A stretch of DNA of 52,021 bases from Solirubrobacterales bacterium. GTDB taxonomy: Bacteria; Actinomycetota; Thermoleophilia; Solirubrobacterales; 70-9. Made by a program: the position numbers and the translations under genes. Shown in pieces: positions 27,406-32,422 of this stretch. The stretch's first letter is position 1; every line of letters begins with the position of its first letter. The stretch lies in contig JADGPJ010000008.1 of the NCBI GenBank assembly GCA_017882505.1, forward strand, positions 1-52,021, written 5' to 3'. The notes beneath the pieces are model-generated. The model ran no database searches, was not told where the DNA came from, and worked only from the letters and a program-made list of their open reading frames with translations.

Positions 27406-27441
27406 CTAACAAAGTCCGCTAGCCTCAGGCTCCTCTTGGGG

Positions 27442-28473
27442 GTGGCACGGACCAGAAACGAATTCGTCGCAATTTGCAGCGGGGTGGCGCTGTTCTGTGG
27501 CCTCTTGGTGGCGGTTCTGGCGATCGCCGCCAACGCGCGGGCCGCCGACGCCGGCAGCCTCGAAGCGAAGCTCTCCTCGGCGCGCGGCGAAGCCGGCTCG
27601 ATCGCCGCCGGCCTGCGCGAAAGCCACGAACAGCTCACCGCCGCCGAAGGCGAAGCGGCGGCGGCCGAAGCGCACGAGGAACGGCTCTCCGGCCTGCTGG
27701 CCGAAGGCGAAGAGCGCGCCGCGGCGCTGAGCGACAAGGTCGCGCTCACCCGCAGGCGACTGGCGTCCGAGAGGGCGCGACTGCGCCGCTCCCGTCAGGC
27801 CCTGGCCGAGCGGCTGGTGGCGATCTACGAGAGCGGCACGCCGAGCACCGCCAGCCTGGTGCTCGGCTCCAGCGACTACCAGGACCTGCTTACCCAGACC
27901 GAATACCTGCGCGAGATCTCCGAATCCGACAGCGCCCTGGCCAGCCGCGTCGAGCAGGTCCGCAACGCCGTCGAGCACGAGGTCGGTGTGGTCAGCGACC
28001 TGAGGCAGAAGGCCGTCGCCTACGACGAACGCCTGGCCGCGGCCCGCTCGGAAATCTCCGCGGTGCGCGAAGCCGCCCAGGCCTCCGCGTCTCACCTGCA
28101 GTCGGTCAGCGCCGGCCGCGAAGCCTCGCTCGCACAGTTGAAACGGAGCATCGGCAATTGGGTCGCCGAGGTCCAGGAAGCGCGGGCGGCCGAAGCGCGG
28201 GTGTCGACCGAAGCCGAAGCCGAAGAAGAAGTCGGGCGCTGGCTCGGCGGCCCGTACTCGATCCCGGCCTACATCGTGATGTGCGAGTCCGGCGGCAACT
28301 ACAGCGCCGTCAACCCATCTTCCGGCGCCGGCGGCGCCTACCAGGTGCTGCCGTCCACCTGGGAACTCTACGGCGGCAAGGGCGAACCCCAGAACGCCCT
28401 CAAAGCCGAACAGGACCGGATCGCGAGCGAAATCTGGGCGGATTCAGGACCTAGCGCTTGGGTGTGTGGGTGA
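27442..28473 (+). CDS. secreted coiled-coil protein with Rpf/transglycosylase-like domain
   Basis: Probable peptidoglycan-cleaving enzyme acting outside the cell. 343 aa. Signal peptide (about 1-36, core GVALFCGLLVAVLAIAANARA with AxA-like site), two long coiled coils (about 40-240) like those of RipA/EnvC-type wall hydrolases, then a C-terminal lysozyme-fold domain (about 265-343). That domain has IVMCESGGNYSAVNP with the catalytic Glu282 and GAYQVLPSTWELYGG, as in resuscitation-promoting factors, and ends SAWVCG with a Cys pairing with the one in MCESGG. GTG 27442 was preferred to TTG 27436. It probably ends with the folded element that starts right after its stop. Confidence 0.85.
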   Translation: MARTRNEFVAICSGVALFCGLLVAVLAIAANARAADAGSLEAKLSSARGEAGSIAAGLRESHEQLTAAEGEAAAAEAHEERLSGLLAEGEERAAALSDKVALTRRRLASERARLRRSRQALAERLVAIYESGTPSTASLVLGSSDYQDLLTQTEYLREISESDSALASRVEQVRNAVEHEVGVVSDLRQKAVAYDERLAAARSEISAVREAAQASASHLQSVSAGREASLAQLKRSIGNWVAEVQEARAAEARVSTEAEAEEEVGRWLGGPYSIPAYIVMCESGGNYSAVNPSSGAGGAYQVLPSTWELYGGKGEPQNALKAEQDRIASEIWADSGPSAWVCG

Positions 28474-28588
28474 CCAGGGACCCCGGGTAGGGGTTTCACT
28501 TAACTTTTTTGTGGGACCGCTTCCAGCTTCGCCCGGAGCTGGGAAGCAAAAAAGTACAAGACGTTCCACCCCTACCCGGGACCCCTGG
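28474..28588 (+). ncRNA. rod-like inverted-repeat element (possible structured RNA)
   Basis: Starts the base after the wall hydrolase stop. The outer arms 28474-28494 and 28568-28588 pair at 19 of 21 positions. Inside, ACTTTTTT (28503-28510) pairs with AAAAAAGT (28548-28555) and GCTTCCAGCT (28519-28528) with AGCTGGGAAGC (28537-28547, one bulged G). The loop is TCGCCCGG. The A/T-rich inner arm is striking in this high-GC DNA. It is not an ordinary terminator, because the A run follows the stem on both strands. It could be a stable RNA, a 3'-end processing structure or a MITE-like element. No known family recognised. Confidence 0.55.
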
Positions 28589-28605
28589 ACGCGCGCCGTC
28601 TAAGC

Positions 28606-28792
28606 GCTCGTCCCTCGGGACGGGCAGATTTCAACCTCTCTCGGTCAGAGCTTGCGAGGGACGGTGGAGGGGTTGCGGTGTCCCTCTCGCAAGCGGCGTC
28701 CTGATTTTCGCCATGCCCGTCGGCGAGAGATGCGCAGTTAACGGCGAAAATCCCAGCGCAGCGGGAGGGACGGCCCGACCCCTCCCTCCGCC
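28606..28792 (+). ncRNA. four further consecutive stem-loops
   Basis: Stem 1: GCTCGTCC-CTCG-GGACGGGC (28606-28625). Stem 2: GCTTGCGAGGGAC (28650-28662) with GTCCCTC-TC-GCAAGC (28680-28694). Stem 3: GATTTTCGCC (28703-28712) with GGCGAAAATC (28743-28752), 10 perfect pairs. Stem 4: GGAGGGA (28764-28770) with TCCCTCC (28783-28789), extended by GC/GC past a bulge. In stem 3, TCGCC can also pair with GGCGA at 28722-28726, giving two exclusive folds. The stretch has no supported reading frame. Together with the rod it fills most of the 418-bp gap before dnaE. Confidence 0.5.
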
Positions 28793-28891
28793 TATGCAGT
28801 TTTCTGCCCCGAAGACCCCCGGAAGTAGCGCGAAAGGGTCGTGGAAGGCGGCGGTGGCATCTGCCCCGGTTGGCATGATCGGCGACAGCCC
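28793..28891. other. dnaE upstream region
   Basis: About 100 bp after the last stem-loop. Contains CATGAT (28874-28879) as a possible -10, 12 nt before the dnaE GTG. No Shine-Dalgarno and no gene seen. Confidence 0.3.
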
Positions 28892-31800
28892 GTGAGTTCC
28901 CCTGCCGCCGTCCATCTGCATGCCCACAGCGAGTACTCGCTGCTCGATGGCGCCTGCAAGATCGATGCGATGGCGGCACGGGCGGCGGAGCTCGGTCAGC
29001 CTGCCCTTGGACTCACCGATCACGGGGTGATGAACGGCGCCGTCGATCTCTACAAGGCCTGCAAGAAGCACGGGATCAAACCGATCGTCGGGCTCGAGGC
29101 CTATCTGGTCGAGGATCGCAAGACGATCAGGGAACAGACTCGATACGAGCGCAACCACCTGACGCTCCTGGCCGAAAGCGACCTCGGCTTCTCCAACCTG
29201 GTCAAGCTCACCTCGGCCGGCTTCCTCGAGGGCTTCTCACGCGGGAAGGCCAACGTCGACATGGACCTGCTCTCCCAGCATTCCGAGGGCGTGATCGTCC
29301 TCACCGGCTGCCTGCAGTCCCGTTTTTGCCGCCGCCTGGTCGAAGAGCGCGCCGGCGACGCCCGCGCCCACCTCGACGACCTGATCCAGGCATTCGGGCC
29401 CGACCAGGTCTATTTCGAGGTGCAGAAGAACGGCATCGCCGAGCAGGACAAGGCCAACGCGGGGATCGTCCGCTTCGCCCGTGAGCTCGGCCGGCCGGTG
29501 GTCGGCACCGCCGACGTCCACTACCTGCGGCGCGAGGACTTCGCCAACCACGCGGCGCTGCTCTGCGTGCAGACGAAGTCGACCCTGGAAGCGCCGAAGA
29601 TGAGCTTCGACACGAACGAGTTCTACATCAAGAGCTCGGAGGAAATGATCGAGTCCTTCGCCGAGTGGCCGGAGGCCGTCCCGACCTCGCGCGAGATCGC
29701 CGAACGCTGCTCGCTGGACATCGAGCTCGGCAGCCTGCTGCTGCCGCGCTACCCGACCGAGAACGGCGAGGAGCCCGAGGCGATGCTGCGCCGGCTCGCC
29801 GGCGAGGGGCTGCGCGCGCGCTACGGCGACCCGGCTCCCGCCGAGGCCGTGGAGCGGCTCGAGTTCGAGCTCGGGGTGATCGAGGAGATGGGCTTTTCCT
29901 CCTATTTCCTGATCGTCTGGGACTTCGTCCGCTACGCGAAGGAGAACGGCGTCGCCGTCGGCCCGGGCCGAGGATCGGCGGCGGGCTCGATCGTCTCCTA
30001 CATCCTCAAGATCACCGATCTCGACCCGCTCGCCGAGGGCCTGATCTTCGAGCGCTTCCTCAACCCCGGCCGCAAGTCGATGCCGGACATCGACATCGAT
30101 TTCTCCGTCCGCGGCCGCGAGCGGATGATCCGCTACGTCGGCGAGAAGTACGGCCGCGAATCGGTCGCCCAGATCATCACCTTCGGCAAGATGGCGCCGC
30201 GCGCGGCGACCCGCGACGCCGCCCGCGTCCTCGGTTTCGACTACGGGACCGGCGACCGCCTTGCGAAGCAGATCCCGGAGCCGATCATGGGCCGCAGCCC
30301 CTCCTTCGAGGAATGCCTGAAGTCGGGCCAGGAGCTGAAACGGACCTACGACGCCGAGCCCGACGCGAAGAAGATCATCGACGTCGCCCAGGGCCTCGAG
30401 GGAATCATCCGCAACAACTCGATCCACGCCGCCGCGGTGGTGATCTCCGACCGTCCTCTGCAGGAGGTCGTGCCGCTGCAGCTGGCCGAGGACCGCAACG
30501 CCCCGGCGGCGGCCGGCAACGGCAACGGCTCGGCCAAGCCGGAGCGCCAGTACAAGATCGTGACCCAGTACTCGATGGGTCCGATCGAGGAGCTGGGACT
30601 GCTGAAGATGGACTTCCTCGGCCTCCGCAACCTCGACGTGATCGAGGACGCGATCGACATCATCGCCCGCTCGCGCGGCGAGACGATCGACATGGAGCAG
30701 ATCCCGATCGACGACGCCAAGACCTACGCGATGCTGGCCAAGGGCGACTCGACCGGCGTCTTCCAGTTCGAGTCCGAGGGCATGCGCGACGCGCTGCGCA
30801 AGGTCGGGCCGACCGAGTTCGCCGATCTGGTCGCGCTCGGCGCCCTCTACCGGCCCGGGGCGATGGCCTATATCCCCGCCTACGCGAAGGGCAAGAAAGA
30901 CCCATCGACGGTGCGCTACCCGGACCCGCGCCTGCGCGCGATCACCGAGGAGACCCACGGCTGCGTCATCTACCAGGAGCAGCTGATGGAGATCTCGCGC
31001 TCGATGGCGGGCTTCACGGGCGCCGAGGCGGACGACCTGCGCAAGGCGATCGGCAAGAAGAAGCGCGAGCTGATGGCGACGATGAAAGACAAATTCATGC
31101 AGGGGCTGGCGGAATCGAACACCGCCCCGAACGTCGCCAAGGACCTCTGGAAGCTGAACGAAGCGGCAGCCGACTACTCCTTCAACAAGTCCCACGCCGC
31201 CTGCTACGGGCTGATCTCCTACCGCACCGCCTACCTCAAGGCCAACTACCCGGCGGAGTACATGGCGGCGGTGATCTCCTCGGTGATGAACACCAAAGAC
31301 AAGGTCCCGTTCTTCGTCAACCGCTGCGCGGAGATGGGGATCGACGTGCTGCCGCCGGACGTCAACTCCTCCGACCACAGCTTCGTCGTCAACGAGAAGG
31401 CGATCCGCTTCGGCCTCGACGCGGTCAAGAACGTCGGCCACTCGGCGGTGGAGGCGATCCTGCGCGCCCGCGAGGACGGCGCCAGCTTGGCCTCGATCTG
31501 GGACTTCTGCGAGCGGGTCGACTCTCGCGCGGTCAACAAACGGGCGATCGAGTGCCTGATCAAGTGCGGCGCGCTCGACTCGACCGGGGCGACCCGCCGG
31601 GGAATGCTGGAGGCGCTGCCGGCAGCCCAGTCGGCCGGTCAGAAGGCCCAGGAGGACGCCCAGATGGGGCAGGGGTCGATCTTCGACTTCGGCGAGGACG
31701 CCGGCGGCGGGGCGACGCAGTCCCAGGCTCATCACCGGCCGCCGATCTCGGGCGCCGAGTTCGACCGGGCCGAGCTGCTGGCGATGGAGAAGGAGACCCT

Positions 31801-32422
31801 CGGCACCTACCTCTCCTCGCATCCGCTGGCCGAAGTCGGAGCCGCCCTGCGGGCGCGGGTGGACTGCAGCCTGGCCCAGCTCGGCGGCAAGCCCGACGGC
31901 GCCTGGGTGACGGTTGGCGGCATCGTCGTCGACTGCAAGAAGATCCGCACCAAGAGCGGCAGCCAGATGATGTTCGCGACCCTCGACGACGTCGAGGGTC
32001 AGGTCGAGATGCTGGTCTTCAAGGCCGACCAGGCCGAGAGCGCGGCGGTGATCGCCCCCGACGCGATCGTCCTCGTTCGCGGCCGGCTCGACCACAAGGA
32101 CCGCGGCGAGACCAAGCTTGTCGTTCAGGAGGCGCAGCGCTTCGAACCCGACAGCGACGAGATCGCCAGCGCCGCCAAGGTCGCGATCCCGACCGGGCCG
32201 ATCCAGCTGACGGTCGACGCCGCGACCCTCAACCCGGAACTCGTCGACGAACTGAAGGCCGTCTTCGAGCACCACAAGGGAGACTCCGACGTCCACCTCG
32301 TGATGCAGACCAGCGCCGGCCCGAAACGCCTGCGCTTCGGCAGCGAGTACCGGGTTCGGCCGTCGAGCAATCTGCGCAACGAGATCGGCCAGGTTCTGGG
32401 GCCGGACGCCCTGGCGGCTTGA
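28892..32422 (+). CDS. dnaE: DNA polymerase III alpha subunit (DnaE1 type)
   Basis: Replicative polymerase of the C family, 1176 aa. N-terminal PHP domain (about 5-270, HLHAHSEYSLLDGACK, LTDHGVMNG) with its metal ligands, hence a possible proofreading role as in other DnaE1 proteins. Catalytic aspartates are in PDIDIDFS (Asp401, Asp403) and MDFLGLRNL (Asp574). The tail has a helix-hairpin-helix region (about 830-890) and a C-terminal OB fold (about 990-1070, VTVGGIVVDCKKIRTKSGSQ). The GTG at 28892 gives the standard start SSPAAVHLHAHSEYSLLDG. Single-gene unit behind the folded region. Confidence 0.97.
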   Translation: MSSPAAVHLHAHSEYSLLDGACKIDAMAARAAELGQPALGLTDHGVMNGAVDLYKACKKHGIKPIVGLEAYLVEDRKTIREQTRYERNHLTLLAESDLGFSNLVKLTSAGFLEGFSRGKANVDMDLLSQHSEGVIVLTGCLQSRFCRRLVEERAGDARAHLDDLIQAFGPDQVYFEVQKNGIAEQDKANAGIVRFARELGRPVVGTADVHYLRREDFANHAALLCVQTKSTLEAPKMSFDTNEFYIKSSEEMIESFAEWPEAVPTSREIAERCSLDIELGSLLLPRYPTENGEEPEAMLRRLAGEGLRARYGDPAPAEAVERLEFELGVIEEMGFSSYFLIVWDFVRYAKENGVAVGPGRGSAAGSIVSYILKITDLDPLAEGLIFERFLNPGRKSMPDIDIDFSVRGRERMIRYVGEKYGRESVAQIITFGKMAPRAATRDAARVLGFDYGTGDRLAKQIPEPIMGRSPSFEECLKSGQELKRTYDAEPDAKKIIDVAQGLEGIIRNNSIHAAAVVISDRPLQEVVPLQLAEDRNAPAAAGNGNGSAKPERQYKIVTQYSMGPIEELGLLKMDFLGLRNLDVIEDAIDIIARSRGETIDMEQIPIDDAKTYAMLAKGDSTGVFQFESEGMRDALRKVGPTEFADLVALGALYRPGAMAYIPAYAKGKKDPSTVRYPDPRLRAITEETHGCVIYQEQLMEISRSMAGFTGAEADDLRKAIGKKKRELMATMKDKFMQGLAESNTAPNVAKDLWKLNEAAADYSFNKSHAACYGLISYRTAYLKANYPAEYMAAVISSVMNTKDKVPFFVNRCAEMGIDVLPPDVNSSDHSFVVNEKAIRFGLDAVKNVGHSAVEAILRAREDGASLASIWDFCERVDSRAVNKRAIECLIKCGALDSTGATRRGMLEALPAAQSAGQKAQEDAQMGQGSIFDFGEDAGGGATQSQAHHRPPISGAEFDRAELLAMEKETLGTYLSSHPLAEVGAALRARVDCSLAQLGGKPDGAWVTVGGIVVDCKKIRTKSGSQMMFATLDDVEGQVEMLVFKADQAESAAVIAPDAIVLVRGRLDHKDRGETKLVVQEAQRFEPDSDEIASAAKVAIPTGPIQLTVDAATLNPELVDELKAVFEHHKGDSDVHLVMQTSAGPKRLRFGSEYRVRPSSNLRNEIGQVLGPDALAA

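What the first reader, a model, noticed from the sequence alone, without database searches (positions are those of the whole stretch)
28474..28792. Five consecutive stem-loops fill the gap between a wall hydrolase and dnaE
Over 320 bp there is a rod-like 115-bp inverted repeat followed by four further hairpins with 7-13 paired bases each. No reading frame there is convincing and no known RNA family (RNase P, tmRNA, SRP, 6S) could be matched by its signature motifs. This density of perfect stems suggests a structured RNA or a regulatory 5'/3' region not yet described.
Basis: partly seen in the sequence, partly recalled or inferred. Interest (0 to 1): 0.75.

Follow-up and report, generated by a model that had tools for sequence, protein, structure and literature searches.

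The report
Paired mobile DNA hairpins before dnaE
The gap between a cell-wall enzyme gene and dnaE in this soil bacterium is filled by a pair of long DNA hairpins belonging to a previously undescribed, scattered (apparently mobile) repeat family, found here in only two related genera, that resembles the known "CGTC" palindromic repeats wrapped in longer, co-varying arms.

Summary
The hairpins are real, but they are not five independent stems and not a private RNA gene. Window 28474-28794 holds two long compound palindromes, A (28474-28588) and B (28667-28784), facing each other. Both belong to one dispersed family: about 170 copies in 13 genomes of two genera of one Solirubrobacterales family, none elsewhere in 232 order genomes (model A) or 399 class genomes (model B). 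Covariation is strong (21 of 33 pairs in A, 18 of 35 in B change on both sides; 0/500 shuffles). Relatives with the same two genes lack the whole block, so it is a lineage-specific insertion directly after the hydrolase stop codon. Elsewhere such pairs move as a unit: similarity between copies begins and ends at the pair's outer ends. 19 of 20 neighbouring pairs are head-to-head. Copies hug stop codons, lie between convergent genes, and some sit in frame inside proteins. These habits, plus an unpaired CGTC tag beside a 9-bp stem (with a CCA tail in B), match CGTC-tagged REPs, which also lack a known transposase; size, loop and 20-bp covarying outer arms do not. No Y1 transposase was found in any carrier searched. 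Stems show no G-U excess over A-C, so pairing looks maintained at DNA level; an RNA role is unproven.

The parts
27436..28473 (+). Upstream gene: PcsB-like coiled coil plus transglycosylase-like domain; stop codon TGA 28471-28473 abuts element A
   Evidence: ORF, Pfam PF06737 57.8 bits, codon-usage scan
28474..28588 (+). Element A, rod orientation (+): compound palindrome; outer arms 28474-28494/28568-28588, conserved core GGGGTTTCACTTAACTTTTTT (28490-28510) and the 3' core around AAAAGTACAAGACGTTCCACCCC (28550-28572)
   Evidence: the repeat finder; CM R1 120 bits; alignment of 22 copies
28560..28563 (-). CGTC tag of element A (GACG on the + strand), on the inner side of A, mostly unpaired
   Evidence: near-invariant columns of alignment A1; consensus fold
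28589..28666 (.). Spacer between the two palindromes, with a small hairpin GTCCCTCGGGAC
   Evidence: sequence; no other copy of this spacer among the loci fetched
28667..28784 (-). Element B, same rod superfamily in the opposite orientation: outer arms 28667-28685/28766-28784, inner stem GATTTTCGC 28703-28711 / GCGAAAATC 28744-28752
   Evidence: CM R2 122 bits; alignment of 18 copies; R2 also finds A elements on the opposite strand
28697..28700 (+). CGTC tag of element B, invariant in 18/18 copies, unpaired, facing element A
   Evidence: alignment A2 and fold
28753..28757 (+). CCAGC tail directly after the inner stem of B, invariant
   Evidence: alignment A2
28817..28838 (+). First sequence downstream of the block that matches the empty site of G002 (CGGAAGTAGCGCGAAAGNGTC)
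28904..32422 (+). dnaE (coding signal from 28904; start about 28891)

Best explanation
The block is a head-to-head pair of members of a mobile, non-autonomous palindromic DNA repeat family. Each unit is a CGTC-tagged, REP-like stem nested inside about 20 bp of outer arms whose sequence differs between copies but stays complementary. The pair (hairpin, spacer, inverted hairpin; roughly 320-480 bp) is the unit that moves. It inserted directly behind the hydrolase stop codon in the lineage of this genome, and such pairs settle mainly between gene 3' ends. Shown: repeat family, covariation, empty sites, pair-wise dispersal, head-to-head geometry, stop-codon adjacency. Inferred: that an enzyme not encoded by the element recognises the folded single strand (conserved unpaired motifs beside a stem) and moves it. 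Possible side effect, also inferred: the hairpin at the mRNA 3' end may alter mRNA decay or termination of the upstream gene.
For: Own genome: about 10 A copies and about 17 B copies; up to 22 A copies in relatives. Covariation: A 21/33 pairs, B 18/35 pairs with both-side changes, 0/500 shuffles, and sliding partners by one column collapses the pairing. R2 finds A on the opposite strand at up to 72 bits, so A and B are one superfamily. Empty site: G002 and G009 (same genus, dnaE 89% identical) and G019, G026 (second genus) have the same hydrolase directly before dnaE without A or B. Moving unit: two pairs in G006 share 427 nt at 89% with both ends at the pair's outer ends and unrelated flanks; three pairs in G010 likewise, 74-81% over about 475 nt. 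Geometry: 19 of 20 neighbouring pairs are head-to-head, tags inward. Position: stop codon to stem median 6 nt, 35 of 53 within -6..+15. In-frame copies inside ORFs with element-free orthologues. DNA level: G-U 14 versus A-C 23 among 1528 stem pairs; sense-only copies 4 versus 9.
Against: No transposase or target-site duplication was found, and no insertion was caught between nearly identical genomes, so the mechanism is inferred. Four genomes of two genera share an insertion at the same place in one gene, which means either long retention with precise losses, or repeated targeting; long retention with compensating changes could mean host function rather than selfish mobility. The orientation bias after stop codons fits an RNA role.
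Confidence: 0.82

Rival explanations
1. A conserved 3'-UTR RNA element: each copy is transcribed behind its gene and its conserved internal loops are bound by a protein or RNase, controlling mRNA stability or termination; convergent genes each carry their own copy, which produces the inverted pairs.
For: Stop codons abut the rod in the sense orientation; among codirectional genes 24 sense versus 6 antisense; several copies exactly fill the gap between two convergent stops; strong covariation and near-invariant internal loops.
Against: No G-U excess over A-C, even in sense-only copies (4 vs 9); copies inside ORFs in both orientations; in the window the second unit (B) is not behind a stop codon on its outer side but about 110 nt before dnaE; presence/absence is patchy at orthologous sites; whole pairs with shared spacers recur at unrelated sites.
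Confidence: 0.2
2. Intrinsic transcription terminators of the upstream genes (bidirectional between convergent genes).
For: Position directly after stop codons, GC-rich near-perfect stems.
Against: No T-run after the 3' arm in the listed copies; the terminator scan finds only one weak site in the region, not at the end of the rods, against 0.5 expected; termination does not need conserved unpaired motifs; element-free relatives seem to have short ordinary hairpins there instead (read by eye).
Confidence: 0.08
3. REPIN/BIME elements of the GTAG type mobilised by a resident RAYT (Y1) transposase.
For: Inverted pairs of palindromes with spacers, dispersed between genes, as in REPINs (PMC3116915).
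Against: No Y1_Tnp (PF01797) match in any of the carriers of A or B among the 61 genomes searched, although the search rings in five control genomes including E. coli; the tag is CGTC, not GTAG.
Confidence: 0.04
4. A sub-question rather than an alternative identity: outer-arm complementarity is made by a mutational process (template-switch correction of quasi-palindromes, or copying during insertion), not by selection on the hairpin.
For: Near-perfect Watson-Crick arms with no G-U bias; arms at the shared insertion in one gene differ completely between genomes yet remain complementary.
Against: The adjoining asymmetric internal loop is not corrected and stays conserved, so correction would have to spare it.
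Confidence: 0.3

Closest known systems
CGTC-tagged REP superfamily (PMC3733652; includes Neisseria dRS3, Rickettsia RPE-4/RPE-6)
   Same: Unpaired CGTC tag beside an 8-9 bp stem; CCA tail (B); head-to-head dimers with spacers; between convergent or codirectional genes; some intragenic; no associated transposase
   Different: 115-140 nt instead of 20-40; about 30-nt variable inner part instead of a 4-5 nt loop; 20-bp covarying outer arms enclosing tag and tail; tag separated from the stem by 2 (B) or about 4 (A) nt; A lacks the CCA tail; in Actinomycetota, not among the five phyla listed there for CGTC repeats
REPINs / BIMEs with RAYT (PMC3116915)
   Same: Replicative unit is an inverted pair with spacer; compensatory changes; mostly extragenic
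   Different: Each half is itself a long rod; no Y1 transposase detected in carriers; no GTAG tag
ERIC and other bacterial MITEs (reviewed in PMC10969869)
   Same: Size class, palindromic, dispersed, often at gene 3' ends, no own gene
   Different: No conserved terminal inverted repeat (outer arms vary), no target-site duplication seen, different sequence
Rickettsia palindromic elements (described in PMC10969869)
   Same: In-frame palindromic insertions inside protein genes
   Different: Here only about 11 of 93 copies are intragenic, in both orientations, and the conservation is of nucleotides rather than of a peptide

Membership tests
CGTC-tagged REP | CGTC tag not involved in pairing, next to the stem | tested here: met
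   CGTC invariant in 18/18 B copies and unpaired; GACG (= CGTC) near-invariant in A, in the asymmetric internal-loop strand, part of it can pair in the RNAalifold model
CGTC-tagged REP | Stem of 8-9 bp | tested here: met
   9-pair core helices in A and B; but outer arms of about 20 bp are added
CGTC-tagged REP | Loop of 4-5 nt and total size 20-40 bp | tested here: not met
   inner region about 30 nt; units 115-140 nt
CGTC-tagged REP | 3-bp tail, mostly CCA | tested here: inconclusive
   CCAGC invariant directly after the stem in B; A has TTAAG
CGTC-tagged REP | Head-to-head dimers predominate, tail-to-tail rare | tested here: met
   19 head-to-head, 0 tail-to-tail, 1 head-to-tail
CGTC-tagged REP | No associated transposase gene | tested here: met
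   no PF01797 in any carrier searched; no coding signal inside the pairs; other transposase families not searched
RAYT/GTAG REPIN | Resident RAYT (Y1) transposase | tested here: not met
Intrinsic terminator | Stem followed by a T-run | tested here: not met
MITE / ERIC-like | Target-site duplication and conserved terminal inverted repeats | tested here: not met
   no duplication visible at five moved pairs; outer arms variable
Structured non-coding RNA / Rfam family | Match to a curated family | tested here: not met
Structured non-coding RNA | Discrete transcript | not testable with these tools
   no RNA-seq available

The most novel reading that the evidence does not exclude
A distinct class of compound palindromic mobile DNA in Actinomycetota, moved as head-to-head pairs without any Y1 transposase and recognised by shape: the outer arms drift freely in sequence but are kept complementary, at long-held sites including inside genes, by a not yet described recombinase acting on folded single strands.
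Probability: 0.2. Interest if true: 0.75.

Novelty: new variant of a known kind. Interest (0 to 1): 0.48.

Why it matters
CGTC-tagged REPs are widespread yet have no known mobilising enzyme (PMC3733652). Here is a family with the same tag and habits that shows empty sites and moved copies, is found in only two genera, and whose carrier genomes show no Y1 transposase. Comparing these with element-free relatives could identify the enzyme. It also extends CGTC-like palindromes to Actinomycetota and warns that strong covariation alone does not prove an RNA.

Tried and rejected
Rfam at gathering and relaxed thresholds: nothing. RAYT/Y1 search: absent in carriers. Intrinsic terminator: no T-run. Integron attC: considered because copies follow stop codons and A contains RYYYAAC, but the partner box GTTRRRY is missing and the variable arms lie outside, not inside; integrase was not searched. 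Viral origin: the core pattern is absent from the viral contig collection. Wider spread: the exact core occurs in 24 stretches of GTDB species, all Thermoleophilia MAGs; model A in 12 of 232 order genomes, model B in 7 of 399 class genomes. Searching the held literature for palindromic repeats in Solirubrobacterales gave nothing relevant.

Full report
OBSERVATION. The region was read and folded. It is far more structured than shuffles of the same dinucleotide content: -170.7 versus -135.9 +/- 6.4 kcal/mol, z = -5.4. The 115-bp rod at 28474-28588 is as described. The remaining stems resolve into one second long palindrome at 28667-28784 and a small hairpin in the spacer. There is no coding signal between the hydrolase stop codon at 28471-28473 and dnaE, and no Rfam match.

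IT IS A REPEAT. Searching the genome in which the window lies with this stretch gave 24 matches in two groups, one for each palindrome. 22 copies of the first (A) and 18 of the second (B) were aligned. RNAalifold finds 33 and 35 pairs, of which 21 and 18 change on both sides while still pairing. Shuffles never reach these values, and sliding one arm by a single column drops pairing from 95% to about 50%. Covariance models find about 10 A and about 17 B copies in this genome and 171 listed elements in 13 genomes (tallied). Several B copies lie at contig ends.

A AND B ARE ONE SUPERFAMILY. The B model recognises A elements on the opposite strand with up to 72 bits. In common orientation both carry CGTC, then a 9-bp stem rich in A and T, inside long outer arms. 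The window therefore holds an inverted pair, A forward and B reversed, with the CGTC tags facing each other. Of 20 neighbouring pairs within 700 nt, 19 have this head-to-head geometry and none is tail-to-tail.

IT IS AN INSERTION. The dnaE N-terminus was used to fetch the same junction in 50 relatives. G002 and G009 (same genus, dnaE 89% identical) and G019 and G026 (another genus) have the same hydrolase in front of dnaE without the block, and the covariance models find nothing there. The first shared sequence after the block is CGGAAGTAGCGCGAAAG at about 28817. G001 and G010 have an A element before dnaE too, but behind different upstream genes and, in G001, reversed.

THE PAIR IS THE MOVING UNIT. 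In G006 two pairs 4.6 kb apart share 427 nt at 89%, and the similarity starts and stops at the outer ends of the pair; three pairs of G010 behave alike, one of them in opposite orientation to the other two. The flanks are unrelated and show no target-site duplication. No coding segment lies inside these pairs.

WHERE COPIES SIT. In 53 copies with a measurable gene 3' end upstream, the distance from stop codon to stem has a median of 6 nt and 35 lie within -6 to +15. 24 copies lie between codirectional genes in the sense orientation against 6 antisense, and 36 between convergent genes. B shows the mirror pattern in most copies. TAG is over-represented among adjoining stops (35 of 67 versus 66 of 197, p = 0.009). 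About 11 A copies lie inside reading frames: a membrane protein without Pfam match, a family-4 glycosyltransferase between its two domains, and the linker of a two-domain ABC ATPase. In the membrane protein the N-terminal insert is present in G000, G026, G019 and G031 and absent in G001, G009, G010 and others. Its arms differ entirely between carriers yet pair in each.

DNA OR RNA. If RNA stems were selected, G-U should clearly exceed A-C mismatches on the transcribed strand. Over all stems there are 1476 Watson-Crick pairs, 14 G-U and 23 A-C; in sense-only copies 405, 4 and 9. This points to pairing in DNA, or on both strands. For comparison, G-T pairing in REP stems has been taken as a sign of transcription (PMC3733652). 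The test is limited by the small number of mismatches; the extension rule penalised both types equally.

COMPARISON WITH KNOWN KINDS. CGTC-tagged REPs (PMC3733652, read) have an unpaired CGTC tag, an 8-9 bp stem, a 3-bp tail usually CCA, mainly head-to-head dimers with spacers, sites between convergent or codirectional genes, some intragenic copies, and no transposase. The present units meet tag, stem length, dimer geometry, location and lack of a transposase; B also has CCA. They fail on loop and total size and add 20-bp covarying arms. Palindromes enclosing CGTC dimers have a precedent there (H. neapolitanus). They should therefore be called CGTC-REP-like, a new variant, rather than a plain member. 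GTAG/RAYT REPINs (PMC3116915) are excluded as the resident system as far as tested: no Y1_Tnp was found in any of the carriers among 61 genomes.

VERDICT. A real, strongly covarying structure, misread as a locus-specific RNA. It is most likely a pair of mobile hairpin elements inserted behind the hydrolase stop codon. Movement by shape recognition of folded single strands is inferred, not shown.

Noticed in passing
L089, L092, L093, L152, L103 (G000:C56, G026:C8, G019:C102, G031:C24, G001:C192): A elements inserted in frame, in both orientations, in a membrane protein gene; relatives have the gene without them; arms differ completely between the shared insertions yet remain complementary.
   Followed up: partly
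L191:1502-1630 and L100:976-1104: A element in the linker between the two ABC ATPase domains of what looks like the same gene in two genera (G019 and G000).
   Followed up: partly
G000 contigs C50:1-58, C54:1-81, C64:10790-10928, C87:1-58: Several contigs of this assembly end inside or next to B elements, as expected for a repeat that breaks assemblies.
   Followed up: no
alignment A1, columns 32/100 and 35/97: In A the base before CTTAAC (A or G) covaries with the base after GACG (T or C), and a T-to-C change in CTTAAC tends to go with A-to-C in AAGACG, which would be a non-Watson-Crick covariation in the internal loop. Seen by eye only.
   Followed up: no
L149:1590-1718 and 1725-1852 (G019:C92): The only head-to-tail neighbours: two A elements 7 nt apart in the same orientation.
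   Followed up: no
stop codons next to A elements: TAG stops are enriched beside A elements (35/67 versus 66/197, p = 0.009); the TAG often lies in the base of the outer stem.
   Followed up: partly
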